DNA from: Rhodocyclales bacterium | Lineage (GTDB): Bacteria; Pseudomonadota; Gammaproteobacteria; Burkholderiales; Rhodocyclaceae | Direction: 5' to 3' | Assembly: GCA_026399435.1 (NCBI GenBank) | Contig: JAPLQX010000039.1 | Span: 1-64,000, forward strand | Length of the DNA: 64,000 bases | Shown: positions 35,901 to 51,944 of the stretch, piece by piece | Layout of the letters: each line of letters begins with the position of its first letter | Numbering within the stretch: the stretch's first letter is position 1 | Translations under genes and position numbers: made by a program | Notes under the pieces: generated by a model | The model's database searches: none | The model's input: the letters and a program-made list of their open reading frames with translations, nothing else | Told to the model about the DNA's origin: nothing

Positions 35901-37116
35901 GACCAAAAATATGTTCGGCATGAGCGTTCCAGCCAATGACGCGGCCATCCTGATCAATGCTGATGACGGCATCCAGCGCAGAATCGATCAGCATCTGGGA
36001 GCGTGCCTGGCTCTCCTTCACCGAGTCATCCAGGCGGCTGAGTTCGAGTTCCGCTTTCGCCTGGCTGGCCAGTTGTGACATCTTCTGCGCGCGGCTTCGC
36101 TGGCGCCAGAGCAGCAGCAACGCGCCATACAGAAGCAGAACGGCGAGGAAGCCGATCGAAGCTGCCCACGACACAAGGGTCCGCAACGGGGCGAATACCT
36201 CGTCACGGTCAAGCTTGGCGACGATGTGCCAATCGCTTCCGGCTACCGGGCGATAGGCGCTGAACACGGCAACATTGCGATAGTCGACGCCGGCCACGGT
36301 ACCCGGTGCATCGGTGCCGACCGCCGTGGCCGCGGGCAGACCGGGGGTCGCGACGGATGGCGTCAGCGTCAATGCCGTGCCTTGGCGATGCCGCAGGCTG
36401 TTCATGAAGACCACGGCATTCCCCTCACGGCGCACCAGGAGTATTTCGCCACTGGGACTGGCCGTGGGCCAGGTTTGTATCAATGGATAGAGGAAGGCGT
36501 TTGCGTTGGCGCGCAGGAGCAGGGCAGCCATTGGTCTCCCGCTTGAACCACGCGAGTTGATTATGGGCACTATCCAGTCGAGATAGGCAAGGCCCTTGGC
36601 ATCAAGCTGGAGGGTGCCGCGCTGAACCTTGTCATCGACCGTCCCGGGTATGCTCGCGGCGAAATGCAGGGAACTGTCATCGCGATCCAGGGATGACATC
36701 AATATTTTCCTGTCGGGGCTCAGCAGCACTACGCCTGTATAGCCATACACCGTTCGCAGGCGGTCCAGATAGCTCCTGACTCTTGCTTGATTGCCGGCAT
36801 TCGACGGTTCTTGAAGGGCTTGATCAACCTGCTCGGCAAATGCCTTGTCCCCCATCAGCATGGTGCCGGTGTTCTCTCGCTCGGTCAGCCAGTTTTCGAC
36901 CTGACTGGCTTTCAGGTCGGCAATCGCTTGGAGATTGGCGTAGGTTTCCCGCTCGATCTGCGGGCTGTAGAGGCTGACCAAGGCAAAGCCGAGCAGCGGA
37001 ACAATGAGCGTCAGCGCGGTCAGGAACAGGATCGGCAGGACTTTGACGGACTTGCCGGCAAGCCCGTCGTCAGTGATGGCGGTGGCGCCAACCGGGACGT
37101 TGTACTTGTCTTGCAT
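32995..37116 (-). CDS. Hybrid histidine kinase: dCache-type sensor, three PAS, HisKA, HATPase, REC, HPt
   Basis: A 1373-aa protein. ATG 37116 has GGGAG 5 bases upstream; an ATG at 37146 lacks this. Order: membrane segment (about 25-50), extracytoplasmic Cache-like domain (about 55-315, with [14 protein letters not shown]), second membrane segment (about 320-345), three PAS/PAC units (about 375-495, 500-620, 625-745), coiled coil, HisKA ([15 protein letters not shown]), HATPase_c ([12 protein letters not shown]), receiver ([13 protein letters not shown]), and a C-terminal HPt ([15 protein letters not shown]). The His-Asp-His chain suggests transfer to a separate receiver; the HD-GYP protein 4 bases downstream is the best candidate (inference). 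Confidence 0.92.
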
Positions 37117-37316
37117 CACGACTCCCTTAGACCCATTGGTATCCAAGACCTTCTAACCGATGCAGACGCCGGGCAAAGTCCGCAGGAGGCCGCAGTGCTG
37201 TCTCCCGCGGCTTGTCGGCGATGCGGATCCGGCGACATGACCTCGATCCTGGCGGGATCGGCTTCGCGATGAAGGTGCTCTCGAATCGGGCAATGCCATT
37301 AGCTCTCATGATTGCT

Positions 37317-37524: not shown

Positions 37525-37572
37525 CTGCATATCGGTTAAGTAGCGGCGCCGATGACCTATTGGGAGAGCACC

Positions 37573-38394
37573 ATGGCTGCAGTGACTGCAACGAATATGG
37601 GGATGAACATGAGTACAAAGCGTACTTTCCGTGTCGCGATGCTTGGATTGACCGAGACCGAACAGCGCGTCTTGAAAAGCATCGCCCGGATCAGTTCAAG
37701 TCGTGCCAGCAACTATGAGTTCGTTGATCACACGAGCGCATCTCACAACGACGTGGTGATTGTCGACGGCGACAGCCCGCAAGCCCTGCAGTCCTGGCGC
37801 AGTACTCCCCACCAGGAGCCTGCCGTGTTCGTCGGCAGCACCGAGCTCGAGGGAGAGAAGTGCCTGAAGCGGCCAATCATGGGCGCGCGACTGCTTGTCC
37901 TGCTCGACGAAATCACTTCGAAGCAACCCCGTCCGGCAGCCGAAACCAGTCTCCCGCGCGCGCCTGAAATTCCTGCCGACGGGAGGGGTGCTGTGAAAAG
38001 TCTGGCTCTGGTGGTCGACGACAGCCCGACAGTGCGCAAGCACATCGAACAGGGATTGGCACCCTTCGGCCTGAAAGTGCATTTCGCCGAAACCGGCGAA
38101 GAAGCCCTGGATCGCCTCGCCAGCGCAAGCTACGACATCGTTTTTCTCGATGTGGTGCTGCCCGGCATCGATGGTTACGCGGTATGCAAGGCGATCAAGA
38201 AGGACCGCGAGATGAAGGCGACACCCGTGATCATGCTTACCGGAAAGTCGTCCACGTTCGACCGCATCAAGGGATCTCTGGCGGGCTGCGATACCTATCT
38301 GACCAAGCCTGTCGAATATGAGCTGTTTCAGAACGTGGTGAAGAAGTATATCGGGGCATCGCTCGGTGTCATGCCGGCCCTTACAAACGCATGA
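37573..38394 (+). CDS. pilG: PilG-type response regulator with extra N-terminal pseudo-receiver
   Basis: A 273-aa protein from ATG 37573, with GGGAG upstream. Residues 142-262 are a standard receiver: LVVDDSPTVRKHIEQ, phospho-Asp193 in IVFLDVVLPGIDG, Lys245 in TYLTKPV; this is the PilG pattern. Residues about 17-115 resemble a second, degenerate receiver (RVAMLGLTETE, DVVIVDGDS, CLKRPIMGARLL). P. aeruginosa PilG is about 135 residues, so this is a two-domain form. It should pass the ChpA signal to the pilus extension motor. First gene of the chemosensory operon. Confidence 0.85.
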   Translation: MAAVTATNMGMNMSTKRTFRVAMLGLTETEQRVLKSIARISSSRASNYEFVDHTSASHNDVVIVDGDSPQALQSWRSTPHQEPAVFVGSTELEGEKCLKRPIMGARLLVLLDEITSKQPRPAAETSLPRAPEIPADGRGAVKSLALVVDDSPTVRKHIEQGLAPFGLKVHFAETGEEALDRLASASYDIVFLDVVLPGIDGYAVCKAIKKDREMKATPVIMLTGKSSTFDRIKGSLAGCDTYLTKPVEYELFQNVVKKYIGASLGVMPALTNA

Positions 38395-38470
38395 AGCAAA
38401 CACAGGGACGACGGGCGCTGCGCCCGGCGTTCGATTTCGAAGTATCAGAGCAACAACCAAGGAGCAGACC

Positions 38471-38833
38471 ATGAGCAAGAAAGTACTCGTAACAGATGAT
38501 TCCCCGGTGGATCAGGCCAACATCAAGAATGTGCTGACCGATGCAGGATTTCTGGTCATCACTGCCACGAATGGGACGGAGGCGATCGCCAAGGCCAAGA
38601 GCGAGAAGCCCGCGCTGATTTTTCTCGATGTCGTGATGCCGGGCATGGATGGCTACGAGACTTGCCGCACATTGCAGACAGATCCTGAAACCAGGGATAT
38701 TCCGGTCATCTTCGTCACCAGCAAGGGGCAAAAGGCCGACAGAGTCTGGGGCCAGATGCAGGGCGCCAAGGGCCACGTCCAGAAGCCCTTCAGCGCCGAT
38801 GAAGTCATCGACCAGATCAAGGCCGTCGCCTAG
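38471..38833 (+). CDS. pilH: Twitching-motility response regulator PilH
   Basis: A 120-aa single receiver domain. DD at 9-10, phospho-Asp53 in LIFLDVVMPGMDG, and Lys105 in GHVQKPF. The sequence after the switch Thr/Ser, FVTSKGQKADRVWGQMQGAKGH, is diagnostic of PilH. PilH is a CheY-like output, thought to act on pilus retraction or as a phosphate sink. ATG follows GGAG by 7 bases. Confidence 0.92.
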   Translation: MSKKVLVTDDSPVDQANIKNVLTDAGFLVITATNGTEAIAKAKSEKPALIFLDVVMPGMDGYETCRTLQTDPETRDIPVIFVTSKGQKADRVWGQMQGAKGHVQKPFSADEVIDQIKAVA

Positions 38834-38859
38834 GACTTGCTGCGATTCAGGGAGAAGCC

Positions 38860-39405
38860 ATGTCCGTCATCGTCGCATCTGTAGCGGATCCGGTTCGGCG
38901 AACCGCCGTGCTGCCCAGCGAGGCGCTGAATCGCTTCCAGCCGCCGGAGGGATTCGCGCCGGTGGCAACAGGGACCGTGGCGAAAAAACTTCGCTACGGC
39001 TTTCGCGCCGTCGGGCTGTCGATGCTGATTCGCGAGGGAATGCCGAGCGAGGTGCTGCCGATGATGCCCTATGCCGCGATTCCAAACGGGCCTGGCTGGT
39101 TGTTGGGAATGATCAATCTGCATGGCACTCTGGTGCCCGTCTGCGATCTGAGGCGGGTGCTGGAGACCGGTGCCGAAGGGGGATCGGCCAAGCCCATGAT
39201 TCTGGTTCTGGACAAGGGCGACAAGGCAGCCGGTTTCGTCATCGACGGCTATCCCTGCGCGGTCACCGGATTGCGTCCGACCAGCCAGGTGTCCGGCCTT
39301 CCCGATCTGCTGGGCCGCCATGTGACCGCCACGCTTGCCACCGACGACGAAGTCTGGCTGGAGTTCGATCATGCAGGTTTTCTCGATGGGGCGAACCAGC
39401 AATAG
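38860..39405 (+). CDS. pilI: CheW-like adaptor PilI
   Basis: A 181-aa CheW-domain protein. It opens with a longer N-terminus (EALNRFQPPEGFAPV) as in PilI, then GFRAVGLSMLIREGMPSEVL, the CheW core GWLLGMINLHGTLVPVCDLRRVLE and the end LPDLLGRHVTATLA. It couples the PilJ receptor to the ChpA kinase. Start ATG 38860 has GGGAG upstream. Between pilH and pilJ as in other Pil-Chp operons. Confidence 0.9.
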   Translation: MSVIVASVADPVRRTAVLPSEALNRFQPPEGFAPVATGTVAKKLRYGFRAVGLSMLIREGMPSEVLPMMPYAAIPNGPGWLLGMINLHGTLVPVCDLRRVLETGAEGGSAKPMILVLDKGDKAAGFVIDGYPCAVTGLRPTSQVSGLPDLLGRHVTATLATDDEVWLEFDHAGFLDGANQQ

Positions 39406-39486
39406 GTTCGAGCCTGCCGGCATGCGACATAGCGAAGAACAAAGGTTTGTACACAGCTTCTTCTTAAAATTGTTGAAAGGTTAGCC

Positions 39487-41721
39487 ATGAAGCTCAATTC
39501 TGCTCTGCTGTCGGGGCTGAGACTGCCCCAGAAATTCCTGATTCTTGGCGTAATTGCCCTGATTCTGGTAGCCGTACCGTTCTACCAGTTCTTTCAGACA
39601 GCCCAGGACCGCGTGACCCTGGCCGAAAAGGAGCTGGCAGGATTCCAGCCGACCAGGAGTGCACTCAATCTGATCAAGCTGACCCAGGAACACCGCGGCA
39701 TGACAGCGGGCGCCCTGGGCGGCAACCAGAAGCTCGTTGAAGAACTGGTGCCCAAGAAAGCTGCGGTCGTCAATGCTGTCGCAGCACTGGATGCCGATGT
39801 AAAAACCATTGCGGACCCACGGATTCAGGAAAGGTGGCGCAATGCGGCGCAGGAATGGGGCAAACTTGCCACGGATCTGGCGAATCGTTCAGTCGACTTG
39901 CCCACCAGCTTCGCCCGCCACACCAAATTGATCGGCGAGTATCTTGTCCTTCTCGACGGGCTGGTCGACCATTTTGGTCTGTCGCTCGATTCAAAGGCGG
40001 AAAACAACTTCCTGATCAAGGCTGCCTATGGTTCGATCGCGCAGCTGAACGAGTCCTTCGGCCAGCTCCGGGCAACGGGCACCGGCCATCTGGCCGAGGC
40101 CGCACGCCTGCGGGCGACGGGAAAATCGGTCGACGAAAGCATGCCGATCGCGGAGCGGATCAAGGTTGCGACGCTGATAGCGTCGGCCCGCGGCGCCATG
40201 GAACTCAGTATCGACAGTCTGAACAAGGCATTGCAGGCCAGTCCGGCACTACAGACCAAGTTGCAGTCGCAGATGGCATCTGCGGAAGGCGCAGCAAAGC
40301 GAGCCATGGAATTGGGTCGCAAGGAGGTTGCCGAATCACAAACGCTGACGATGGATTCGGCGGAGTACTTTGCGGCAATCACCAAGGGCATGGCTGAACA
40401 ATTTGCCCTCTCGGATATGGCCGTTGCGGCGCTCGGTGAAGAATTGCAGGCCACAGCAAAGAGCCTGCGCCTGAGCCAGATCACCATCTCGGCAATCATT
40501 CTGGTCCTGATCGCACTGGGTATTGTGCTTTCGCTGTTCATCATGCGCACGATCACGAACCCGATGAACCACTTGCGGGGCGTTATGGAAAAGCTGCGCC
40601 TGGGCGACGCCGAAGTACGCGCACGTATCGATAGCCACGACGAGATCGGCGAGCTGGCACGCCAGTTTGACCAGATGGTGGATGAGCGCGAAGCCGTGTC
40701 GGCGCAGATCAAGAAGGAAAACGAGCAACTCAACGAATCGGTGTTGACCCTGCTGCAGGGCGTGGCGCAACTTTCCAGAAAAGACCTGACGGCCAAGGTG
40801 CCGGTGGCCGAAGACGTGACCGGTGCCGTGGCGGACGCTCTCAACATGTTGTCATCCGAAACCGCCAAGGTATTGCAACAGGTGACCAACATTTCGGCAG
40901 ACGTTACGGGTGCTTCGTTGAAGGTCAAGCAGCAATCGGACACTGTGCGCGAAACGGCGGAAGAGGAGCGCCAGCTGGTCATCAAGACCGCGGAAGACCT
41001 GCTACTCGCTGCCGAGGGCATGTCGCGCATCGAACAGCTGGCACAATCGGCGAACATCGCGGCCGACAACGCGATCAAGACCACGCAAGCGGCTCTGGCG
41101 ACAGTGAGCGCGACGGTGGGCGGCATCAACAGCACGCGCGACACCATCCGTGAAACGGAAAAGCGAATCAAGCGCCTGGGCGAGCGTTCCCAGGAAATTT
41201 CCGGCGTGGTCGGCATCATCAACACGATTGCGGAACGTACGCACATCCTCGCGCTCAACGCCTCGATGCACGCCGCTTCAGCCGGCGAGGCAGGTCGCGG
41301 TTTTGCGGTGGTTGCGGAAGAAGTGCAGCGACTGGCGGAAAGCTCGCGTCAGGCGACCGCCCAGATCGCCACGCTGGTCAACAACATTCAGGTCGAAACG
41401 GCGGACACGGTCAATACGATGAATTCGGCCATCACTCAGGTGGTGGATGGTTCCAGATTGGCCGAGCAGGCTGGCGAACAGATGAAGCTGACGCAGGCCA
41501 CGACTGCCGATTTGGTGGCTTCGGTCAGGGAAATTGCTTCCAGTTCGCAGGAGCAGGCGCAAATCTCGGCGGGTCTGCTGACTCGATCCGGCGAAATCCG
41601 CAAGAGTTCGGAAAGGACCAGCCAGGAACTGACTGAGCAGGCCGGACAAACCGAGAATCTGGTGGAGTACGCCAGGGCATTGCTCGGCTCGGTGCGGGTT
41701 TTCAAGCTGCCGGCCACCTGA
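39487..41721 (+). CDS. pilJ: Methyl-accepting chemotaxis receptor PilJ
   Basis: A 744-aa receptor. Membrane segment about 16-36; periplasmic part about 40-335 with a NIT-like helix (LNLIKLTQEHRGMTAG); second membrane segment about 340-360 (ISAIILVLIALGIVLSLFIM); HAMP about 360-412; cytoplasmic MCP signalling hairpin with the tip at about 581-615 (ERTHILALNASMHAASAGEAG). Length and layout match PilJ, the surface- or pilin-sensing receptor. No methyltransferase or methylesterase gene accompanies it here. Confidence 0.93.
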   Translation: MKLNSALLSGLRLPQKFLILGVIALILVAVPFYQFFQTAQDRVTLAEKELAGFQPTRSALNLIKLTQEHRGMTAGALGGNQKLVEELVPKKAAVVNAVAALDADVKTIADPRIQERWRNAAQEWGKLATDLANRSVDLPTSFARHTKLIGEYLVLLDGLVDHFGLSLDSKAENNFLIKAAYGSIAQLNESFGQLRATGTGHLAEAARLRATGKSVDESMPIAERIKVATLIASARGAMELSIDSLNKALQASPALQTKLQSQMASAEGAAKRAMELGRKEVAESQTLTMDSAEYFAAITKGMAEQFALSDMAVAALGEELQATAKSLRLSQITISAIILVLIALGIVLSLFIMRTITNPMNHLRGVMEKLRLGDAEVRARIDSHDEIGELARQFDQMVDEREAVSAQIKKENEQLNESVLTLLQGVAQLSRKDLTAKVPVAEDVTGAVADALNMLSSETAKVLQQVTNISADVTGASLKVKQQSDTVRETAEEERQLVIKTAEDLLLAAEGMSRIEQLAQSANIAADNAIKTTQAALATVSATVGGINSTRDTIRETEKRIKRLGERSQEISGVVGIINTIAERTHILALNASMHAASAGEAGRGFAVVAEEVQRLAESSRQATAQIATLVNNIQVETADTVNTMNSAITQVVDGSRLAEQAGEQMKLTQATTADLVASVREIASSSQEQAQISAGLLTRSGEIRKSSERTSQELTEQAGQTENLVEYARALLGSVRVFKLPAT

Positions 41722-41807
41722 TCCTGATATCCACCCGCACGGTGGAGGGCGCCCCCTGCGCGCCCTCCGACGGTTCGCAACGCAAGTCAAACCCCGATGG
41801 GGGCATT

Positions 41808-44800
41808 ATGGATATGATTGTTGCCCGGGTTCCGGATTCCGGCCCGCCTGAGATGTTCGTCGCAAACCTGGAAGAACAGGTGGTATCCGCCGTCGAGCGG
41901 ATCTGCGCAGCGATGGGTGACGCCGATGGCATCATCGCCGACCGTGCGCAAGCGAAAGCGGCACTGGAACTCTACTGCGACGAACTGCGGGGCATCGCCG
42001 ATGCGGCCGTCCGCGAGGACGCCGAAGGTCTGCGCCAAGTCTGCCACCAGATGATGCGGCAGATCGACGATCTGCGGCAGGGTGAACAGGGGGTGAGCGT
42101 TGCGACGTACGCCCTGCTCATGGAGTGGCCGGACGTTCTTATCGGATTCCTGGCCAATCCGGAAGATTCATCCGGTGCCGAAGCCTTGCTGCGGCATTTG
42201 CAGGATCCGCTGTGGCCCTCGTCAGTGAATTCGCTGCAGGCGACAAACCTTATTGAGTTGCTGCGCTGTCAGAGTTTGCATGCCGCCGGCTCGTTGCCGG
42301 ATTGTATCTGTGGTGAGCATGCCGGGCTGGAGCAGGACTTTCCGGAAAGCGACGGCGAAAGCCAGGAAAGCCGATCTGCATCCGGTATGAGCGTCACCGT
42401 TCAATCCGAGTCGCATGATTCGTCGGCGACTGATGAAGTCGTCGGCAGCGAGAAGGCAATCGCTCAAGTTTCGGAAATTTTCAATCGTGCCGAAGAGGAA
42501 GGCCTGCTCGGCCTGCAGGAGGTCTGCATGCGTGTCATGCAGAACGTCGACCTGGTGGCCGCAGCGGACATTCAGCCGGGAACGCCCTTGGGCGACATGC
42601 TGGAAAGCTTCCCCCTGGTGGCACATGAGTATCTGGCGGCGCGTCACGATCCCGCTGCGGCAGACCTGCTGGCAGACTTCCTCAGCGTGGAATTGTGGCC
42701 GGAGCCGCTCGCGGCAGAAGAGCGCGAAGGTCTCCAATGCATTCTGCGCGCAGACCAGGGCGATCCGCTGGCGTCAGTTTCCGCGCCGGATCAGCTGGCT
42801 GTTGCGGCAGGGGACGCAGCGGCTGATGAACTGGCCGCGGACGACGCGGTGCTGCTCGATGAGCCGATCGATCCGCAGCCGCAAACGATCAATGACGAAT
42901 TGATCGGCATGCTGGCGGAAGAACTGTCCGGCATGAGCAGCGATCTCGGGCAACTGTTGCCGGCTACCGGGGTGTCCGCGCCGGCGAGCGACGCCGGCGT
43001 CGAGGCAGTCGAGGCCTATGCCGATTTGATCCAGCGCCTCGGCGTGGCGGCGGAAGCAGTTGGCCTTGCCGCACTGCGGAGCTTTCTCGGATCGGTGCAC
43101 CGGCGCCTGGTGACCGAGGGGCGAAATGGCTTGACCACCCGGCAATCCAATGCGCTGGCATTGCTGCCGGGATCCATTCTCGCCTATCTGGCCGCGCCGG
43201 CCGATTCCAGCACCGGCGAGGGCTTGCTCGATCTGTTGCGCGGCGACACATGGGCTCAGCCGCCCTCCGCAGCACATGTTGCAACGCTGCTGCTCGCGCT
43301 ATCGATGGTGGAAATATGCAAGGACCGTGTTGACGTCGAGGCGCGGCAGAAAGAGGCGCTAGCGGAGAATGTTTCGCTGGCGCTTCCGACCGACTTGAGC
43401 CAGGAACTGCTGGATGGCCTGTTGCAGGAAATGCCGTTGCAGACAGGCGAATTTTCAGCCTGCATACAGCGCCTGGCTGCCGGCAGCGGCACGATGAAGG
43501 ATGTCGATTCCGCCAAACGTGCGGCGCACACATTGAAGGGAGCCGCCAATACGGTAGGCATCAAGGGCATCGCCAACCTTACTCACCACGTCGAAGATAT
43601 TCTGGTGGCGCTGTCGAAGTACCAGATCCTGCCCGGGAGCAAGATGGCGGCGATGCTGACCAACGCCGGCGATTGCCTTGAGGCGATGGGCGAAGCCGTG
43701 ATGGGCACCGGCCCCGAGCCTGATTACGCCCTGACGGTGCTGCAGGATGTCCTCGATTGGGCCAACCGCATCGATCGCGACGGTGTGCCCGAGGACGATG
43801 CGCCGGCCGACGCGCCGGTACGGGGCGAAACCAGCCCTCGCGCGAACCCGGAAAACGAAGCGGAGCCTGCCGCCGCACAGTTGGCCCAGCCCGGCGAAGC
43901 GATGATCCGGGTTCCGGCCGGTCTGGTGGACGAACTGCTGCGCCTGGTCGGAGAAACCATTATCTCCACCGGGCAGGTGCGTGAGCGATTGCAGCGCCTG
44001 CAGCGTCAGAACATTGCGATTCGCGCACAGAACGGCGTATTCCTGCAACTTGCGACTGAACTCGAGGAACTGGTTGATTTGCGCGGCGCAGCGGCAGGAT
44101 TCGGCGCGGCGCGGGAGGACGATGAATTCGATCCGCTCGAATTCGAGCATTATGGCGAACTGCATACTGTCAGTCGCAGGCTGATCGAGGCCGCCACCGA
44201 CACCGGCGAGTTGTCCGCCGAAGTGCACACTGAACTGGGCAGTCTCGGCGAACTGGTGGACGTGCAGAACCGCCTGCATGAGGAAAGCCAGAACGCCGTG
44301 ATGCGTACGCGCATGGTGCCGGTGACGACGATTGTCTCGCGCCTGCAGCGCAGCGTGCGCCAAGCCAGCCGGCTGCTGGACAAGCAGGTGGCGCTGAATG
44401 TGGTCGGTGCCGACACCATGATCGACAGCAACATTCTCGGCGAACTGGTCGATCCGATGATGCACATGCTGCGCAATTCGGTCGATCACGGCATCGAAAG
44501 TCCCGAGCAGCGCGCTGCGGCCGGCAAGGACCCGGAAGGACATATCGAACTGGTCTTCTCCAGGGAAGGCAACCAGGTTGTGGTTCGTTGCCGGGACGAT
44601 GGATCCGGCCTGGATCTGTCGGCGGTGCGCCGTACCGCGGAAAGCAGAGGCATGCTGGCCAGCGACCAGATCCTGTCCGACGACGAAATGGCGCGGCTGA
44701 TTCTTGCGCCCGGTTTTTCCACCCGTGCCGAATCGACCCAGATGTCCGGTCGCGGGGTCGGCATGGACGTGGTTTACAGCCGCGTGCTGCAACTGAAGGG

Positions 44801-45722
44801 CGGGCTGAATCTCAACTCCGTGCCGGGCCAGGGGCTGGAAATCGAATTGCGCTTGCCGGCCATGCTGATCTCGACGCATGCGCTGCTGGTCCGTTCGCGG
44901 GCGCGCGTATTCGCCGTTTCCAGCTATGGAGTCCAGGATATTCGCTACGTGACACTCGACCAGGTTCAAAAAGTCGGTGGCGAGAGTTTCTTCCGGATCA
45001 ACGAGGAGCTTTTGCCTATCGCCGACCTCGACGATCTGCTGAATCTCAAGGGCGAGAGGCGCGGCGATGAACGCAAGGGCGGGTTCCCCGCCTTGATGGT
45101 GCGTGACGACTCGGGTGCGGTACATGCCGTGCACGTGCAGGAAATCATCGATAGTCGCAGCCTGGTGGTGAAGAACCTGGGACGCTATGTGCCCAAGCCC
45201 CATGGTGTGGTAGGCGCGACGATTCTCGGCGACGGCAGCGTGGCCGCAGTCATCGACATTCCCGAACTGATGCGGAAACCCGCGCGCCGCGAAGCGGCTG
45301 CGGAGCTGGACGAGGTACGCGATGTGCATGGCGACCATGCGGCGGCCGGCAGTTCCAGGCTCACGGCTTTGGTGGTCGACGATTCGCTTTCCGCACGCCG
45401 CGCCACGGCTCAGTTCATGAAGGATGCCGGCTACGAGGTGCGCACCGCCATCGACGGACTGGAAGCCGTTTCCATTCTCGACAAGTGGAGGCCAAGCCTA
45501 TTGCTGGTCGATATGGAAATGCCGCGCATGAATGGCCTGGAATTGACGGCCCACGTTCGCGCCCGGCCGGATACGGCAAAAATTCCGGTGATCATGATCA
45601 CCTCGCGCTCAACGGAAAAGCACCGGCGCCAGGCGGAGTCCGCCGGCGTCAACGTCTACCTGACCAAGCCGTTCGGTGATGACCAACTGCTGCGCAACAT
45701 CAGCGAACTGACCGCCGCATGA
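41808..45722 (+). CDS. chpA: Chemosensory pilus hybrid kinase ChpA/PilL
   Basis: A 1304-aa protein from ATG 41808 (GGGGG upstream). Residues 45-150, 220-315 and 400-500 are three similar helical modules ending in a WP-type motif, with no phospho-His. A canonical HPt follows, His574 in AAHTLKGAANTVG. Then the CheA dimerisation helices (IRVPAGLVDELLRLVGETI), HATPase (HMLRNSVDHGIE, DDGSGLDL, MSGRGVGMDVV), a CheW-like domain and a C-terminal receiver (LLLVDMEMPRMNG, VNVYLTKPF). P. aeruginosa ChpA has many Hpt/Spt/Tpt modules; here only one His module is clear. It phosphorylates PilG and PilH. Confidence 0.93.
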   Translation: MDMIVARVPDSGPPEMFVANLEEQVVSAVERICAAMGDADGIIADRAQAKAALELYCDELRGIADAAVREDAEGLRQVCHQMMRQIDDLRQGEQGVSVATYALLMEWPDVLIGFLANPEDSSGAEALLRHLQDPLWPSSVNSLQATNLIELLRCQSLHAAGSLPDCICGEHAGLEQDFPESDGESQESRSASGMSVTVQSESHDSSATDEVVGSEKAIAQVSEIFNRAEEEGLLGLQEVCMRVMQNVDLVAAADIQPGTPLGDMLESFPLVAHEYLAARHDPAAADLLADFLSVELWPEPLAAEEREGLQCILRADQGDPLASVSAPDQLAVAAGDAAADELAADDAVLLDEPIDPQPQTINDELIGMLAEELSGMSSDLGQLLPATGVSAPASDAGVEAVEAYADLIQRLGVAAEAVGLAALRSFLGSVHRRLVTEGRNGLTTRQSNALALLPGSILAYLAAPADSSTGEGLLDLLRGDTWAQPPSAAHVATLLLALSMVEICKDRVDVEARQKEALAENVSLALPTDLSQELLDGLLQEMPLQTGEFSACIQRLAAGSGTMKDVDSAKRAAHTLKGAANTVGIKGIANLTHHVEDILVALSKYQILPGSKMAAMLTNAGDCLEAMGEAVMGTGPEPDYALTVLQDVLDWANRIDRDGVPEDDAPADAPVRGETSPRANPENEAEPAAAQLAQPGEAMIRVPAGLVDELLRLVGETIISTGQVRERLQRLQRQNIAIRAQNGVFLQLATELEELVDLRGAAAGFGAAREDDEFDPLEFEHYGELHTVSRRLIEAATDTGELSAEVHTELGSLGELVDVQNRLHEESQNAVMRTRMVPVTTIVSRLQRSVRQASRLLDKQVALNVVGADTMIDSNILGELVDPMMHMLRNSVDHGIESPEQRAAAGKDPEGHIELVFSREGNQVVVRCRDDGSGLDLSAVRRTAESRGMLASDQILSDDEMARLILAPGFSTRAESTQMSGRGVGMDVVYSRVLQLKGGLNLNSVPGQGLEIELRLPAMLISTHALLVRSRARVFAVSSYGVQDIRYVTLDQVQKVGGESFFRINEELLPIADLDDLLNLKGERRGDERKGGFPALMVRDDSGAVHAVHVQEIIDSRSLVVKNLGRYVPKPHGVVGATILGDGSVAAVIDIPELMRKPARREAAAELDEVRDVHGDHAAAGSSRLTALVVDDSLSARRATAQFMKDAGYEVRTAIDGLEAVSILDKWRPSLLLVDMEMPRMNGLELTAHVRARPDTAKIPVIMITSRSTEKHRRQAESAGVNVYLTKPFGDDQLLRNISELTAA

Positions 45723-45723
45723 C

Positions 45724-46221
45724 ATGAGCCAGCCAACACAAAAAGACCGCTCGGCGTCCCTGCCTGAATCCGGCTTTGCCTTGCTGCGCGTAGACCAGGC
45801 CAGTCTGGTTGTGCCCCGCGATGACATCCGGATTCTGGAATTGACCATCGATGTCGACCGCAACGAGCCTCCGTCGCGCGGAGTCGGCTGGATAGCGTTC
45901 GGACCGCAACGCTGCCCGGTGTACTGTCCATCCCAGGAACTTGGCTGGATGGATGCTGTTGCCGAGAACCGTCCGGTTTGTGCCGTGGTTGCGTCGGAGC
46001 AGCGGATCTTTGGCCTGCTCTGCAGCGAGGCGGGGCTCATCGCAAACGACGAGATCGTTTTTCAGGAGCTTCCGCCTGCGATGGCGACGCCCGGTTCGCC
46101 GATTCGCCGCCTGGCAACCTACCAGGGGGCGCTGGCCTGCGTATCGTCCGCCGCTGATTTGCTGGCGGATATCCTTTCGGCGCAAGCAAGCGACGACCTG
46201 CTTCTCGAAGAGGCCACCTGA
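45724..46221 (+). CDS. CheW-like protein in the Pil-Chp operon
   Basis: A 165-aa protein, MSQPTQKDRSASLPESGFAL. The segment GFALLRVDQASLVVPRDDIRILEL and the end FGLLCSEAGLI look like a shortened, diverged CheW fold. It starts 2 bases after the chpA stop and overlaps the next gene by one base (TGATG). No exact family known to me; a second adaptor or a scaffold for ChpA is likely. Confidence 0.75.
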   Translation: MSQPTQKDRSASLPESGFALLRVDQASLVVPRDDIRILELTIDVDRNEPPSRGVGWIAFGPQRCPVYCPSQELGWMDAVAENRPVCAVVASEQRIFGLLCSEAGLIANDEIVFQELPPAMATPGSPIRRLATYQGALACVSSAADLLADILSAQASDDLLLEEAT

Positions 46222-46685
46222 TGGAATCGATTGCGTGGCTGTTGAATTTCGGTAATGGTCAGCTTGCGGTGGTGGGAAGGCGTGAACTGCTGCACCTGGT
46301 GCCGCAGCCAGCGTTGTTTGAAGTGCCGAGGGCACCGCGACACTGCTCACGCGTGCTGATCTGGCAGGATCGCATCGTGCCGGTATGGGACATGCTGGCG
46401 TGGCTTGCGCCGAATTCCAGGGCAGTGAATGCCAGCCTGTTGGCCGTGGTCGGCTACCAGTCCGGTCCTCGCCAGGTTCCGCGATTCGGCGCCGTATTGC
46501 TGGCAGAGCCGCCGGCGCGCGTCGTGGTGGCCGACACGCAAGCCTGCGAACTTCCCCAGGATCAGTCCGCCTGGGGCCGGATTGCAAGTTCCAGCTTTTG
46601 CCATGAAGAAAAGCCGATAGGCATACTCGATCTGCCCCTGATGTTTTCCGGGGCCTGTGCCGGAAAACCGGCGGCAAATAATTAG
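46221..46685 (+). CDS. CheW-like protein (ChpC-type) at the end of the Pil-Chp operon
   Basis: A 154-aa protein with CheW features: LVPQPALFEVPRAPRHCSRVLIWQDRIVPVWDMLAWL, FGAVLLAEPPARVVV. ATG overlaps the previous stop. In Pseudomonas, ChpC is an additional CheW-like adaptor coded after chpA; this gene is in the corresponding position, preceded by a second such protein. Last gene of the operon. Confidence 0.8.
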   Translation: MESIAWLLNFGNGQLAVVGRRELLHLVPQPALFEVPRAPRHCSRVLIWQDRIVPVWDMLAWLAPNSRAVNASLLAVVGYQSGPRQVPRFGAVLLAEPPARVVVADTQACELPQDQSAWGRIASSSFCHEEKPIGILDLPLMFSGACAGKPAANN

Positions 46686-46829: not shown

Positions 46830-49800
46830 TCAGCTTGTCGGGTTCTGCCTGTTCTTGGCAGCGAAATCACGGTACGCCATGTCCGACTTGAGAATGTGGT
46901 CCAGCAGCCAGTGTTTCAGGTAGGCATGCACGGCACCGACATCACGGATGCCGACCGAGCCTTTGAGGCTGAAGTCGGTCATTCTCTCCACAAAGCGGTT
47001 GTGTTCCGCCTGGTGCGCGGCGATTCCCGAATAGCCGATCCTTTGCAAATGATTTTCCTCGTCCGTGAAATGCCGCTGGCAGTAATCGACCATGCCGGAC
47101 AGAATTTCCATGTAGCGTTCCGCCCCATCGGGCTTCCGCGTATCGCCGCAGGCTGCGAGTTGATTGATCCGGTTGATCAATTGCCTGTGCTGATCGTCGA
47201 GTTCCGCCACGCCGACGCTGAACTCCTCGCGCCAGGTCAGCTGATCCGTTGCGGTCGGGCTGCCCGTCGGGAAGGGGGCAGCCGGGTGAAGAACGCGCTC
47301 GACTTCCTCGCCCATGGTCGCGATTGCGCTGTCCAGCCGGGCGAACAAGGCCTCGGTCGGATCGCCATTGTGCAGAGCCAACTCCAGAGCTGAAAAGCTG
47401 CCCTGAATCTCTGTCAGGCCCAAGGAGCCGGCACGCCCCTTGAAGTCATGCGCGGTCTTTGCCGCCTCTTCCTTGTGCCCGTTTGACAGTTCGACGCGGA
47501 GTTTGTCGGGAACTGCGCCGATGCTGCGCATGAAGTCCTCGAGCCAGTGCTGGTAGCGATCCGTGCGCCCGCCGAAGCGCGCGACCCCGGCCGCTACATC
47601 GACGCCGCGCAGGCGGTGCAGGCCGTCGGCTGCGGCAGTGGGCGGCGCCGCCGCCTCCGGCGGCGCCGGCTTCTGTTCATTCAGCTTGCCGCCGAGCCAC
47701 CTCGCCAGTGTGCGATAGAAGCTGTTGTTGTCGAAGGGCTTGCTGATGTGGTCGTTCATGCCGGCAGCAGCACTGATCTGCTTTTCGTGCTCCATGGTGT
47801 ACGCAGTCATGGCGACAATCGGCAGCGATGCGTAGCGGGTCTGGGCGCGTATTGCCCGGGTTGCAGCGAGGCCATCCATGACCGGCATCTGGATGTCCAT
47901 CAGGATCAGGTCGAAGGTGCCGGCGGCGCACTCGTTGAGGATCTTCAGCGCTTCCTCGCCGTTTTCGGCCATCCGGGCGCTGATGCCGACGGCGGTCAGC
48001 AGTGCTTCGATAATTTCGCGGTTGAGCGCCTGATCCTCGACGACGAGGACGCGGGCATCCTTGTAGCCACCCATTGGCGCGTCGGACTGACTCGACTCAT
48101 CGACCGGCATGTCGCTTGCACTCCCCAGCCGTAGCCAGATCGTGACCCGAAAGATGGTGCCGCCGCCGTGGCGACTGGTGACCGCTATGTCGCCGTCCAT
48201 CATTTTCGCAAGCCTCCGGCTGATGGCAAGGCCCAGTCCGGTGCCGCCGAATCGGCGCGCCGTCGCCATGTTCGCCTGGGTGAACGGCTCGAACAGGCGC
48301 TCAAGATCGTCGGGGACGATGCCAATGCCGGTATCTTCGACTTCGATTGCCAGGCAGACACGATCGTCAGTGCGGGCATGCTGGCTGACACGGAGCTCGA
48401 CCCGGCCGGCCATGGTGAATTTGATGGCGTTGCTGACAAGATTGAGAACGATCTGCTCGATGCGCAATGGATCGCCGACCAGGATGTCGGGTACTGCCGC
48501 GTCGACCTGCTCGACCAGGGGCAGGCCTTTTTCCTCGGCGCGATGGGCCATCACCGCAAGGCCCTGTCGCACGAGGGCACGCAGACTGAAGGTCAGGTTC
48601 TCCATCTCCATGTGGCCAGCGGCAATCTTGGAAAGGTCGAGCAGGTCGTTGATGATGCGGTTCAGGTGTTTGCCCGAAGTCACGATCTTGTCCAGGTAGT
48701 TGCACTGCTTGGCATCGTGACTGATCGCGCGTGCCAATCCGGCCATGCCGATCACGGCATTGAGCGGGGTGCGCAGTTCGTGACTCATGTTGGCGAGAAA
48801 TGCGTCCTTGGCCTGGTCGCTGCACTTGGCATCTTCCAGCGCCGCCTTGAGTTCGAGCGTTCGCTGTTCGATCAGTTCTTCCAGATGCTCGTTCTGATCT
48901 TGCAACTGGCACTCGATTTGTCTGCGCTCGGTGACGTCGCGGGCCAGAACAATGAAGTGCGCTTCCTGTCCCTCATGCTCGGCCATGCGCGCCACGGACA
49001 ACTCGAACCACCGGTCGCCCTGCATTAGATGGAGGGTGTACTTCCTTCCGGCAGACCAGCCGTTTTGCGCCGCTTCCTGCATCGCGGCGTAATACGTTGG
49101 GGCGGCATCCGTCGGCAGCAAATCGGCAAACCGCATGCCCAGGGTTGCTTGCGCAGGAGCGGCGTGCAAGTCGGTGCGCGGGAAATGATAGCTGAGAATC
49201 CGCTCGTCGGCTCCAAGCTCGAACAGATAGTCGGGAATTGCGTCGAGCGTGGCCTCGAGTCGGGATTTCGTCTCATGGACTTCGGCTTCGGCGTGCTTGC
49301 GTTCGGAAATATCCTGGGTGAACCCGATCTGTCTGCTCGGAACACCTTTCTCATCAAAGACGATATAACCCCACGAGGCGATCCAATGGATTGCGCCGCT
49401 GCCCGGGTGAATGACTCGATATTCAATGGCGGGGAACAAGTCATGCTGCGCAACAGACTCGAAGAAGTGGTCGATGGTGCGTTCGCGATCGTCGGGATGC
49501 AAAAGTTGCTTCCAGCCGGAGAGGTTGCGCTTGAAGCTGCTGTCGATGCCGAACATTTCGTCAAACAGAGGATCATTGGTCCAGGTGGCGGTGGCTATGT
49601 CAACGACATAGTGCCCCAGGCGCGCGGCTTTTTGTGCGGTCCGTAACAAGGCCTGGGTTTCCCGGCTTGCTTCCTCGGCACGCTTGCGTGAGGTGATGTC
49701 AATCACGCTGAAACGCACCAGGCGATTATTGGCGGACGGCAGGTGCGCCAGGCGAAATTCACCGTGGAATCTTTCTCCCCGGGCATTGTGGATGATGCTC

Positions 49801-51107
49801 TCGAAGTAGACCGATTCTCCGGCCAGCGCTCGCTGGATGTTTTCCTGTAGACGTTCAACCGAGCTCATGGAGTCGAACTGGTCGCTCGGACAAAATCTTT
49901 CGGGGCCGGCCCGCAGCAGTTCCTCCCGGCTGCATCCATACAGCCTTTCCGCCTCGGCATTGGCCTCGACGAAACGCTTCAGGTCCGGGTCGTACACCGT
50001 GATCGCGTCGGGCGCCTGTTCCACCAGAACGCGGAAGCGGGCTTCGCTTTGCCGCAACGATCCCGTCATGGCTTTGGCCAGGCGCAGCGCGCGATCCCGC
50101 GTGGTAGCCAACGACCACGCGAGGGTGAACAGCAACACGCTGATGAGCACGCCTCCTGCCAGTACCTGGTTCGAACTGACCACGCTTTCACTCATTTCGA
50201 GTTGCGGCAGGCTGGCATAGGTGAGCGTCCAGGGTCGGCCACCAACAACGAGAGTCTCCCGGTGCGCAAATTTCGCTGCAGGGGCCGGGGACTGATCATT
50301 GCTGCTGAAGAACAGTTTGTCCGGATTGGGTTCGCTGCCGTCGTAGACGTTCAGCGAGACGGCCCGGAGACGCTGCCTGAGGACATTCTCTATCAGGGTG
50401 GGCATGCGAAATGGGCTTAGCACGTAGCCGTAGATGCCGTCGTCCGATTTTCGCTTCACCGCCAGGTACATGATGAAGGCGGTCCGCGGTTTGTCTTGCT
50501 CGTCGATTTTCAGCGTCAGCCGCGCCGTGGTCGCGGGTTCGCCGCTGTCCCGCGCTCGCTGCATGGCATCGCGCCGGTCGGCGTCCTGCCACATGTCATA
50601 GCCAAGGGCCTTGAGGTTGAGGCCGCTACCGGGTTCGGCAAAGACATTGACGACATAGCGCTCGCGGTGACCGGGCGGGCGCACGGCGAAATCGCTGATG
50701 CCGTCCCGGCGTACCTCGCTTATCAGTGCGGGGAGTTCGGCAGCGGTGACGGAACGCGCAAAAGCCACGGCCTGGGCCGCCGGATAGTCTTTTTCCAGGT
50801 TCAGCTTGCTCAAGTAGCTGCGCCATTCTTCCCGGGTGACCTTTTCGCTTGAGGAAAAAAAAGCAGCGGCGGCGCGCATGGCCAAGGTATAGCCGGCAAT
50901 GCTCCTGTTGAGGTCCCCGCGAATTTGACTGACCTCGAAATCGAACCGGAGACGCTGATAGTGCTCCAGGTCCTTCTGGTTCTTGTGCCAAGGGACGATG
51001 GTTAGTATCAGCGAACATGTCAGGGCGATCCAGGCAGGCCACAAACGCGCCTGGAACAGGCGCGAGTACCACGCTGGCGCGGCAGTTGGAGCGGCAGCGG
51101 TGCTCAT
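46830..51107 (-). CDS. Hybrid histidine kinase with CHASE sensor, PAS domains, REC, HPt and C-terminal bacteriohaemerythrin
   Basis: A 1425-aa protein. Membrane segments about 22-40 and 325-345 flank an extracytoplasmic CHASE domain (FARSVTAAELPAL, MYLAVKRKS). Then PAS/PAC units between about 365 and 740, HisKA ([15 protein letters not shown]), HATPase_c ([12 protein letters not shown]), receiver (LILMDIQMPVMDG) and HPt (KTAHDFKGRAGSLG). The last 135 residues are a haemerythrin domain with all seven di-iron ligands: His1307, His1346, Glu1350, His1365, His1369, His1404, Asp1409. This suggests binding of O2 or a related ligand directly by the kinase. It is divergent from the HTH-receiver gene across 219 bases. 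Confidence 0.93.
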   Translation of the reverse strand: MSTAAAPTAAPAWYSRLFQARLWPAWIALTCSLILTIVPWHKNQKDLEHYQRLRFDFEVSQIRGDLNRSIAGYTLAMRAAAAFFSSSEKVTREEWRSYLSKLNLEKDYPAAQAVAFARSVTAAELPALISEVRRDGISDFAVRPPGHRERYVVNVFAEPGSGLNLKALGYDMWQDADRRDAMQRARDSGEPATTARLTLKIDEQDKPRTAFIMYLAVKRKSDDGIYGYVLSPFRMPTLIENVLRQRLRAVSLNVYDGSEPNPDKLFFSSNDQSPAPAAKFAHRETLVVGGRPWTLTYASLPQLEMSESVVSSNQVLAGGVLISVLLFTLAWSLATTRDRALRLAKAMTGSLRQSEARFRVLVEQAPDAITVYDPDLKRFVEANAEAERLYGCSREELLRAGPERFCPSDQFDSMSSVERLQENIQRALAGESVYFESIIHNARGERFHGEFRLAHLPSANNRLVRFSVIDITSRKRAEEASRETQALLRTAQKAARLGHYVVDIATATWTNDPLFDEMFGIDSSFKRNLSGWKQLLHPDDRERTIDHFFESVAQHDLFPAIEYRVIHPGSGAIHWIASWGYIVFDEKGVPSRQIGFTQDISERKHAEAEVHETKSRLEATLDAIPDYLFELGADERILSYHFPRTDLHAAPAQATLGMRFADLLPTDAAPTYYAAMQEAAQNGWSAGRKYTLHLMQGDRWFELSVARMAEHEGQEAHFIVLARDVTERRQIECQLQDQNEHLEELIEQRTLELKAALEDAKCSDQAKDAFLANMSHELRTPLNAVIGMAGLARAISHDAKQCNYLDKIVTSGKHLNRIINDLLDLSKIAAGHMEMENLTFSLRALVRQGLAVMAHRAEEKGLPLVEQVDAAVPDILVGDPLRIEQIVLNLVSNAIKFTMAGRVELRVSQHARTDDRVCLAIEVEDTGIGIVPDDLERLFEPFTQANMATARRFGGTGLGLAISRRLAKMMDGDIAVTSRHGGGTIFRVTIWLRLGSASDMPVDESSQSDAPMGGYKDARVLVVEDQALNREIIEALLTAVGISARMAENGEEALKILNECAAGTFDLILMDIQMPVMDGLAATRAIRAQTRYASLPIVAMTAYTMEHEKQISAAAGMNDHISKPFDNNSFYRTLARWLGGKLNEQKPAPPEAAAPPTAAADGLHRLRGVDVAAGVARFGGRTDRYQHWLEDFMRSIGAVPDKLRVELSNGHKEEAAKTAHDFKGRAGSLGLTEIQGSFSALELALHNGDPTEALFARLDSAIATMGEEVERVLHPAAPFPTGSPTATDQLTWREEFSVGVAELDDQHRQLINRINQLAACGDTRKPDGAERYMEILSGMVDYCQRHFTDEENHLQRIGYSGIAAHQAEHNRFVERMTDFSLKGSVGIRDVGAVHAYLKHWLLDHILKSDMAYRDFAAKNRQNPTS

Positions 51108-51287
51108 CGGTCGCGCCCCGGATCAGGAAAGGCTCGGTGTCTTTTCATTCAATCTGCTCTCGGAAACTTGTCAGTCGATGCTCTTTGCCTGGATATCCGG
51201 GCGTGACATGGGGATTCGCGACCCGCTACCGAATATTTCGGAGTATCTCCCTCGCTGAAACTGATATCATCAAGTTGTTTTTGTGAC

Positions 51288-51326
51288 TATAATAGCCGTA
51301 ATTCCATATCTAATGGAAATGTTTCC
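51288..51326 (+). promoter_or_regulatory. Consensus -10 box and inverted repeats before the HTH-receiver gene
   Basis: A perfect TATAAT lies at 51288-51293; no good -35 is visible at 16-18 bases, so activation may be needed. Downstream are TTCCAT (51302-51307) with ATGGAA (51313-51318), and GGAAA-TG-TTTCC (51315-51326) directly before the GTG start. These overlapping inverted repeats are plausible operator sites for the protein itself. Confidence 0.45.
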
Positions 51327-51944
51327 GTGAATACTAAAGCTGATTTTATTTCGACGCGTGAAGCCGCCCGCCTGCTCGGTGTCGGACTGACGACCGTGCA
51401 GCAATGGGTGGAATCCGGGGCCTTACCGGCATGGAAGACGGCAGGTGGTCATCGCCGGATTCCGCTGGTTGCGGTCGACGTCATACGCCTGCAACAGCAG
51501 GCGGCTCTCGGCACGAACCTCAGGTCGACGCCCGAACCGCGGCTGAAGGTTTTGCTGGTGGAAGACGATCCCATGCAGCGGGAGATCTACGGACACCAAT
51601 TCGCCGACTGGAAACTTCCGGTTCAGTTGTTCACCGCCGAAGACGGCTTTCAGGGATTGATCATGATCGGTCGGCACAGCCCGGACCTGATCATCACCGA
51701 TCTGGCGATGCCGGGCATGGATGGCTTTGAAATGATCCGGCGCATCAAGAGCCGATCTTCGGTGTTCGACGGCTCCATCATCGTGGTGACCGCTCTCGGC
51801 GCAGAACAGATCAAGGCGTTTGGCGGGCTGCCGGAGGGAATCCAGGTTTTTTCCAAGCCGCTCTCCTTTGAATTATTGCGACAATTGGTCGAAGGCATGA
51901 CGAGCACAGCCGCGAGCCAGGACCGCATTCCCGCCCGACCCTGA
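51327..51944 (+). CDS. HTH-receiver protein: MerR/excisionase-type DNA-binding domain fused in front of a receiver
   Basis: A 205-aa protein starting at GTG 51327. Residues 6-56, FISTREAARLLGVGLTTVQQWVESGALPAWKTAGGHRRI, are a helix-turn-helix of the MerR/excisionase type. Residues 73-190 are a receiver: LLVEDDPMQREIYG, phospho-Asp125 in LIITDLAMPGMDG, Lys177 in FSKPLS. Most response regulators have the receiver first; here the order is reversed. It is divergent from the haemerythrin kinase, so it is a natural candidate for that kinase's output (inference). Confidence 0.88.
   Translation: MNTKADFISTREAARLLGVGLTTVQQWVESGALPAWKTAGGHRRIPLVAVDVIRLQQQAALGTNLRSTPEPRLKVLLVEDDPMQREIYGHQFADWKLPVQLFTAEDGFQGLIMIGRHSPDLIITDLAMPGMDGFEMIRRIKSRSSVFDGSIIVVTALGAEQIKAFGGLPEGIQVFSKPLSFELLRQLVEGMTSTAASQDRIPARP

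What the first reader, a model, noticed from the sequence alone, without database searches (positions are those of the whole stretch)
46830..51107. Histidine kinase with a complete haemerythrin domain at its C-terminus
CHASE-PAS-HisKA-HATPase-REC-HPt-haemerythrin in one chain, with all seven di-iron ligands identifiable. Haemerythrin after the HPt is rare and suggests that O2 (or NO) binding gates the last step of phosphorelay rather than the autokinase.
Basis: partly seen in the sequence, partly recalled or inferred. Interest (0 to 1): 0.75.

Follow-up and report, generated by a model that had tools for sequence, protein, structure and literature searches.

The report
Histidine kinase with C-terminal hemerythrin tail
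A bacterial sensor kinase carries, at the far end of its phosphate relay, a complete iron-binding domain of the oxygen-sensor type; relatives suggest a conserved, movable add-on, so the unusual arrangement is real, but whether and where it acts on the relay is untested.

Summary
Window 46830-51107, minus strand, is one intact 1425-aa ORF: TM-CHASE-TM-three PAS-HisKA(H776)-HATPase-REC(D1071)-HPt(H1220)-hemerythrin, with all seven di-iron ligands. Seventeen proteins, this one included, share the HisKA-HATPase-REC-HPt-Hr end but differ in N-terminal sensors and neighbouring genes; the phospho-His is kept in 17 of 17 and all seven ligands in 15 of 17 (one Gln substitution, one cut by a contig end). 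They come from MAGs titled Sulfuritalea, Sterolibacterium, Rhodocyclales or only (beta-)proteobacterium. The Hr is under purifying selection (dN/dS 0.12-0.26 in six pairs, below the HPt in each). Wider samples gave no other genome with the full arrangement (shallow). That O2 gates the last phosphotransfer is not established: related Hr tails sit directly on REC in three kinases without HPt, and two kinases of another family have a separate REC-Hr fusion; the HPt-Hr tether varies in length and is a low-confidence stretch in both models. Best reading: a portable O2/redox-sensor tail tuning a CHASE/PAS-driven phosphorelay to a divergent HTH-REC regulator. New variant of a known kind; O2 binding and gating are inferred.

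The parts
46830..51107 (-). Whole ORF, 1425 aa hybrid histidine kinase with hemerythrin tail
   Evidence: ORF; Pfam
50307..50843 (-). CHASE domain, residues 89-267, between two hydrophobic stretches (about residues 20-40 and 308-335), so probably periplasmic
   Evidence: hydropathy; location inferred
49692..50012 (-). PAS domain 1, residues 366-472
49320..49574 (-). PAS domain 2, residues 512-596
48918..49247 (-). PAS domain 3, residues 621-730
48615..48812 (-). HisKA, residues 766-831, phospho-acceptor H776
48132..48476 (-). HATPase_c, residues 878-992
47718..48050 (-). Receiver (REC), residues 1020-1130, phospho-acceptor D1071
47286..47615 (-). HPt domain, residues about 1165-1274, phospho-acceptor H1220
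   Evidence: helical and of high confidence in the models
47238..47285 (-). HPt-Hr linker, residues about 1275-1290, little conserved, pLDDT under 50 in part in both models
46872..47237 (-). Hemerythrin domain, residues about 1291-1412; ligands H1307, H1346, E1350, H1365, H1369, H1404, D1409
51327..51944 (+). Divergently transcribed response regulator, 205 aa, N-terminal excisionase-type HTH_17 plus REC; probable partner of the kinase
   Evidence: kept next to the orthologous kinase in L051
51108..51326 (.). Intergenic region between kinase and regulator; no sigma-70-like, terminator-like or FNR-like match found

Best explanation
A membrane-anchored hybrid kinase takes an outside signal through CHASE and inside signals through three PAS domains, and runs a four-step relay H776 -> D1071 -> H1220 -> Asp of a response regulator, most likely the divergent HTH_17-REC protein at 51327-51944. 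The C-terminal hemerythrin is an added O2/redox input, flexibly tethered to the phosphotransfer end, that raises or lowers the output of the relay according to the state of its di-iron site (by analogy with characterised Hr sensors, reduced versus oxidised rather than simple O2 binding). The switch element is probably the Hr N-terminal loop, which reorders with redox state in DcrH and here joins directly to the tether. Shown: architecture, ligands, conservation, selection, presence of the tail on kinases with and without HPt, low-confidence tethers, synteny with the regulator in one other genome. Inferred: di-iron occupancy, O2/redox response, effect on the relay, partner pairing.
For: All seven ligands in 15 of 17 HPt-Hr proteins and 5 of 5 REC-Hr kinases. 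Hr dN/dS 0.12-0.26 over six pairs, lower than the HPt (0.32-0.49) in each of the six; kinase core 0.17-0.25 and REC 0.18-0.33 over five pairs (the pairs share members and no significance test was made). Relay residues present, HPt His in 17 of 17. Orthologous locus L051 keeps kinase, divergent HTH_17-REC (75% identical) and CheA-type gene in the same order. The HK-REC-HPt-Hr end is constant while N-terminal parts vary: CHASE, Tll0287, HAMP, PAS only, and dCache-like matches below their cut-off. Six of 17 have a neighbouring REC protein that is not a kinase: HTH-REC (window, L051), REC-PAS-PAS-LuxR (L052), REC-EAL (L047), REC-X (L048, L061). [quoted passage not shown]
Against: No biochemistry; di-iron loading and O2 response are by homology only. 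No FNR-like site was found between the two genes. One Hr (L053, truncated by its contig) has Gln at the H1365 position, and one close relative (L062) ends after the HPt with no Hr found in six frames, so the tail can be lost. Eleven of the 17 have no non-kinase REC gene seen beside them (three of these, L054, L057, L059, have a kinase-REC ORF nearby, and L056's two ORFs have only each other; several loci are cut by contig ends). Partner pairing rests on 2 loci; none of 20 chosen loci round more distant relatives of the regulator holds an HPt-Hr kinase.
Confidence: 0.55

Rival explanations
1. One reading: the Hr gates only the HPt step (D1071 -> H1220 or H1220 -> response regulator), leaving autokinase untouched.
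For: Hr sits next to the HPt through a tether of 13-43 aa in 17 proteins; HPt His is invariant in them.
Against: Kinases with related Hr and no HPt (L046, L126, L127) and a separate REC-Hr fusion (L128, L129); tether with mean pairwise identity 0.24; pLDDT under 50 within the HPt-Hr linker and pTM 0.65 and 0.49, so no fixed HPt-Hr placement.
Confidence: 0.2
2. The Hr acts back on the kinase core (autophosphorylation or phosphatase balance), the tail folding against HisKA/HATPase or changing dimer geometry, with the HPt a bystander.
For: REC-Hr kinases without HPt exist; C-terminal Hr tails occur on MCPs too, where the target must lie upstream in the chain, as in DcrH (PMC9388753).
Against: The 691-aa model has low overall confidence in domain placement (pTM 0.49), so no packing on the core is shown; two low-confidence linkers lie between REC and Hr.
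Confidence: 0.2
3. The di-iron site senses NO, peroxide or iron status rather than O2/redox in general.
For: The ligand set alone does not tell the ligand apart; for the Hr-like domain of P1B-5 ATPase the review leaves O2/redox or iron sensing open (PMC9388753).
Against: The canonical 5-His, Glu, Asp set is kept, unlike the HxE variant of P1B-5 ATPase (PMC9388753).
Confidence: 0.15
4. The Hr is not a sensor: a local O2/iron buffer or a neutral gene-fusion remnant.
For: The tail is absent in one close relative, L062; the own genome has 9 Hr matches, five of them in short frames of 160-192 aa.
Against: Purifying selection and ligand retention over divergent paralogues; a related tail on another kinase type.
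Confidence: 0.08

Closest known systems
Hemerythrin-domain chemoreceptors (DcrH type, MCP-Hr)
   Same: Hr at the extreme C-terminus of a membrane signalling protein, canonical seven ligands (PMC9388753)
   Different: Here the Hr follows a receiver and HPt of a phosphorelay, not an MCP signalling domain; 5 of the 6 out-of-family Hr-ended frames scanned with Pfam are MCP-Hr
[quoted passage not shown]
   Same: Fused Hr acting as redox switch for an enzyme (PMC9388753)
   Different: There the Hr is N-terminal to the enzyme; here it is C-terminal to a multi-step relay
Histidine kinase-hemerythrin chimeras counted in 2008
   Same: Four chimeric Hrs with histidine kinase domains are counted in PMC2556348 (passage)
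   Different: Their domain order and any HPt are not given in the passage read; no characterised kinase-Hr protein appears in the parts of the 2022 review that I read
Tripartite hybrid kinases with HPt (ArcB/BarA/TorS type)
   Same: HisKA-HATPase-REC-HPt order and residues; best NCBIfam hits are BarA, TorS, ArcB
   Different: Far below the equivalog cut-offs (BarA 394 of 890 bits, ArcB 321 of 838), and those kinases carry no Hr tail (recalled)

Membership tests
Bacterial hemerythrin-domain sensors (features as listed in PMC9388753) | conserved iron ligands H-HxxxE-HxxxH-HxxxxD | tested here: met
Bacterial hemerythrin-domain sensors (features as listed in PMC9388753) | fusion to a functional signalling domain in one chain | tested here: met
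Bacterial hemerythrin-domain sensors (features as listed in PMC9388753) | larger substrate tunnel | not tested
   no model coordinates were at hand
Bacterial hemerythrin-domain sensors (features as listed in PMC9388753) | relatively rapid autooxidation | not testable with these tools
   needs purified protein
[quoted passage not shown]
   needs phosphotransfer assay
Tripartite hybrid histidine kinase with HPt | HisKA phospho-His, HATPase, REC Asp in order | tested here: met
Tripartite hybrid histidine kinase with HPt | HPt domain with phospho-His | tested here: met
   H1220 present; Pfam Hpt 24.1 bits against cut-off 24.6, so marginal by Pfam alone; His conserved in 17 of 17
BarA / ArcB / TorS equivalogs | NCBIfam score over the equivalog cut-off | tested here: not met
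   394 of 890, 321 of 838, 363 of 676.5 bits

The most novel reading that the evidence does not exclude
An O2/redox checkpoint placed downstream of the kinase: a whole paralogous family of hybrid kinases with different inputs and different regulators shares one hemerythrin tail that decides, after the kinase has fired, whether phosphate leaves the relay, giving AND-logic between any signal and oxygen state; the tail is a movable cassette that has been carried to other REC-ended kinases.
Probability: 0.22. Interest if true: 0.75.

Novelty: new variant of a known kind. Interest (0 to 1): 0.45.

Why it matters
Sensors usually sit upstream of the kinase. Here a conserved di-iron sensor-type domain is fused after the last phosphotransfer domain. 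If it controls phosphate flow it would be the first hemerythrin-controlled phosphorelay that I could find (searches in the report), and a plug-in way to make a two-component pathway oxygen-dependent. The paralogues with and without HPt or Hr form a natural series for testing it. The carriers are MAGs; one title names groundwater, and others look like lake samples (inferred from names such as LacPavin), settings where oxygen changes over short distances.

Tried and rejected
Chance or frame artefact: rejected (intact ORF, 17 proteins).

Degenerate Hr: rejected (ligands and dN/dS). The WIN/L051 pair is close to saturation (dS 1.60 for Hr), so it carries little weight; L057, L058, L059 and L049 each occur in more than one pair.

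Hr tied to the HPt: rejected as a rule (L046, L126, L127, L128, L129). The Hr tree has only 123 columns, so the placing of L126/L127 beside L048 (99/84) is supportive, not proof.

L135 was labelled HPt-only in the tree, but its frame is cut by the contig end inside the HPt, so its Hr state is unknown. L050 and L053 are truncated and were not in that tree; of the kinases that tree took 42 rows with a core score of at least 200, so L128 and L129 were left out of it.

Limits of the surveys: both DNA patterns lie in the HPt, so kinases with divergent HPt or with REC-Hr would be missed, and records of the window's own genome may be left out. In some searches some frames matched from inside the HPt region through the Hr (for example 78-290, 79-291, 83-293, 84-292 of 295); those four were not fetched. 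Four with starts at 98-102 were (L193-L196), and my HPt profile finds nothing in them. My profiles are family-specific, so a divergent HPt or kinase could escape them.

FNR-like site between the genes: none (20 matches in the window at up to 2 mismatches, chance mean 14.0). Promoter/terminator scan of 51050-51400: none.

Partner regulator by wider co-occurrence: of 20 loci round more distant relatives of the regulator, 12 hold a kinase-like ORF, one of them (L185) an HPt-ended kinase, none an HPt-Hr kinase; no control was run for that rate.

REC-X in the own genome: no match (genome about 81% complete, and the tool warns that an empty answer shows nothing without a positive control).

Fold search of the REC-HPt-Hr model: the 50 rows shown are receiver or response-regulator hits, so it says nothing on the Hr; not pursued. 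PDB sequence search with the HPt alone: nothing at E 0.01.

Structure models gave pLDDT, pTM and secondary structure only, no inter-domain error matrix or coordinates, so docking could not be examined directly.

Full report
What is there. The ORF at 46830-51107 on the minus strand codes for 1425 aa without interruption. Pfam places CHASE, three PAS domains, HisKA, HATPase_c, a receiver, an HPt and a hemerythrin domain in that order. Relay residues are H776, D1071 and H1220; the Hr ligands are H1307, H1346, E1350, H1365, H1369, H1404 and D1409. The Hr aligns to the solved bacteriohemerythrin 4xpx (E 1.9e-16), with the ligand motifs in register in the printed alignment, and to DcrH (E 9e-11).

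How common. A search with the HPt-Hr part in 199 family genomes gave matches spanning both domains in 6 genomes: the window's own and five others with 8 places (one of the 8 is cut by its contig end; at most 13 candidates scored per genome; the list is sorted by E-value and cut). With an 8-row alignment (A1) the genus gave 7 of 31 genomes. In 369 class genomes and 349 phylum genomes only the window's own genome had a match over the whole of both domains, with at most 6 candidates scored per genome and a cut list. Twenty Hr-ended frames of 520-1158 aa from the list were fetched; none has a kinase core or HPt by my family-specific profiles, and of six scanned with Pfam five are MCP-Hr and one is REC with cNMP-binding, metallo-beta-lactamase and Hr domains. 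The scan of the species genome collection (one genome for each of 84,980 species) matched 70 stretches and gave 40 loci, 15 of them with HPt and Hr, from 11 assemblies titled Sulfuritalea, Sterolibacterium, Rhodocyclales, Rhodocyclaceae, Betaproteobacteria or uncultured (beta-)proteobacterium. Both patterns of that scan lie in the HPt.

Anatomy of the family. Including the window, 17 ORFs carry HPt and Hr in tandem. The HPt His is present in 17 of 17; the seven ligands are complete in 15 of 17, with a Gln at the fourth ligand in L053 and L056's second ORF cut by the contig end after five ligands. The N-terminal parts differ: CHASE (window, L044, L048, L051), Tll0287 (second ORF of L043), HAMP (L040, whose start is cut, and L045), dCache_1 below its cut-off (L041 43.5 and L043 32.9 bits of 45), PAS only or unassigned (L042, L049, L057, L061). 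The tethers are 26-40 aa (REC to HPt, 16 rows) and 13-43 aa (HPt to Hr, 17 rows): mean pairwise identity 0.24 for the HPt-Hr tether against 0.53 for HPt, 0.54 for Hr, 0.64 for the kinase core and 0.69 for REC.

Selection. In six pairs dN/dS is 0.12-0.26 for Hr and 0.32-0.49 for HPt, Hr being lower in each pair; in the five pairs with a kinase core and REC these give 0.17-0.25 and 0.18-0.33. The pairs share members and one is near saturation; no test of significance was made. The Hr does not look like a decaying leftover.

The Hr is a movable tail. On a tree of 42 kinase-REC cores (15 HPt-Hr, 24 HPt-only, 3 Hr-only) the window lies in a supported set of 17 rows (97/96) with 14 HPt-Hr, one Hr-only (L046, which lacks the HPt) and two labelled HPt-only. 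Of those two, L135 is cut by its contig end and L062 stops after the HPt, with no Hr in six frames of the locus. One more HPt-Hr kinase, L060, falls outside that set with weak support. Two genus members, L126 and L127, have a different kinase core (grouped elsewhere: 100/99 together, 96/92 with two HPt-only kinases), no HPt by Pfam or profile, and a Hr tail that falls among the HPt-Hr tails, next to that of L048 (99/84; only 123 columns). Two kinases of another family (L128, L129) end in REC-Hr, with Hrs that group with short-frame Hrs of other families (100/100), so a separate fusion. Thus the Hr can sit on REC as well as on HPt.

Neighbourhood. Divergent from the kinase, 219 bases away, lies a 205-aa regulator with an excisionase-type HTH and a receiver. 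L051, from a Betaproteobacteria MAG, has the same divergent pair, with a CheA-type gene on the other side, as in the window; the regulator is 75% identical (G201:C160, which agrees with L051 in coordinates). Of the 17 HPt-Hr ORFs six have a non-kinase REC gene beside them: HTH-REC (window, L051), REC-PAS-PAS-LuxR (L052; also an HDOD-REC gene), REC-EAL (L047), and REC-X, a REC protein with an unassigned C-terminal part of about 250 aa (L061, L048; in L048 cut by the contig end). Three more have a kinase-REC ORF nearby; for the rest none was seen, several loci being short. REC-X follows an HPt ORF on the same strand within 72 bp in 14 of 21 matches: 8 HPt-only proteins without kinase core, 4 HPt-ended kinases and 2 HPt-Hr kinases (these loci were fetched for their HPt, so closeness is partly by choice). 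I infer that REC-X is the usual receiver of this HPt type; in the window's genome none was found.

Structure. AlphaFold models of REC-HPt-Hr (416 aa, residues 1010-1425; mean pLDDT 88.5, pTM 0.65) and of kinase core to Hr (691 aa, residues 735-1425; mean pLDDT 83.4, pTM 0.49) show well-formed domains joined by low-confidence stretches: pLDDT under 50 at model residues 271-275 of the first, and at 270-277, 411-425 and 542-551 of the second; in the first the REC-HPt linker has block means of 51-64. Their mutual placement is not settled, and no fixed Hr-HPt docking can be claimed.

Mechanism. [quoted passage not shown] In this protein that loop follows the tether directly. I infer that the di-iron state changes the reach or contacts of the tail and so the phosphate flow at the REC/HPt end, but the kinase core cannot be excluded as target.

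Known or new. Chimeric Hrs with histidine kinase domains were counted (4) in 2008 (PMC2556348, one passage); 56 Hr architectures were reported in 2016 (PMC4919030, passages; the word Hpt does not occur in its main text; its figure S2 with the architectures was not seen). Bhr-66 of Methylomonas has an N-terminal Hr followed by PAS-like folds (PMC12607906, passages). The parts of the 2022 review that I read list characterised MCP, DGC, HD-GYP and P-type ATPase fusions and no kinase. Searches for hemerythrin with 'Hpt domain' (2 papers), 'phosphorelay' (10), 'hybrid histidine kinase' (3), bacteriohemerythrin with 'histidine kinase' (11), haemerythrin with 'histidine kinase' (5), hemerythrin with 'histidine kinase' and 'domain architecture' (13) and with Sulfuritalea (1) showed no title or abstract start on an HPt-Hr kinase; apart from the papers named here and PMC11841059 and PMC11784011 (passages), only listings were seen. 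The library holds open-licence papers only. I therefore rate it a new variant of a known kind.

Noticed in passing
L061:7049-8173 (+) and 20 further matches: REC-X: a response regulator of about 370-410 aa whose C-terminal ~250 aa has no Pfam family over its cut-off in the five scanned; within 72 bp after an HPt ORF in 14 of 21 matches, seven of these HPt ORFs being free-standing proteins of 151-171 aa.
   Followed up: partly
L130, L131, L132, L133, L134 and L204: Proteins joining a metallo-beta-lactamase domain, cyclic-nucleotide-binding domains and a C-terminal Hr (Pfam for L130, L132, L204; the other three by Hr profile and tree only); L204 also has an N-terminal receiver.
   Followed up: no
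window 37552-46685 (+): Cluster of two receiver proteins, CheW, HAMP-MCP, a CheA-type hybrid with receiver and two further genes, one CheW-like below its cut-off, looking like a Pil-Chp type cluster (label recalled); convergent with the kinase.
   Followed up: partly
window 28816-31683 and 32998-37146 (-): Two more large hybrid kinases: Tll0287-PAS-HK-REC, and a dCache-like (below cut-off)-PAS-HK-REC with about 237 unassigned C-terminal residues.
   Followed up: no
window 21313-23667 (-): 785-aa protein with a caspase-type Peptidase_C14 domain.
   Followed up: no
L053:3-857: HPt-Hr protein (truncated by the contig) with Gln at the fourth iron ligand, a natural ligand variant.
   Followed up: no
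L185 (G127): A 1745-aa kinase-REC-HPt ORF lies just upstream of a relative of the HTH-REC regulator, another hint that such regulators serve HPt-ended kinases.
   Followed up: no
G000 (own genome): Nine Hr matches in a 2.88 Mb, about 81% complete genome, five in short frames of 160-192 aa.
   Followed up: no
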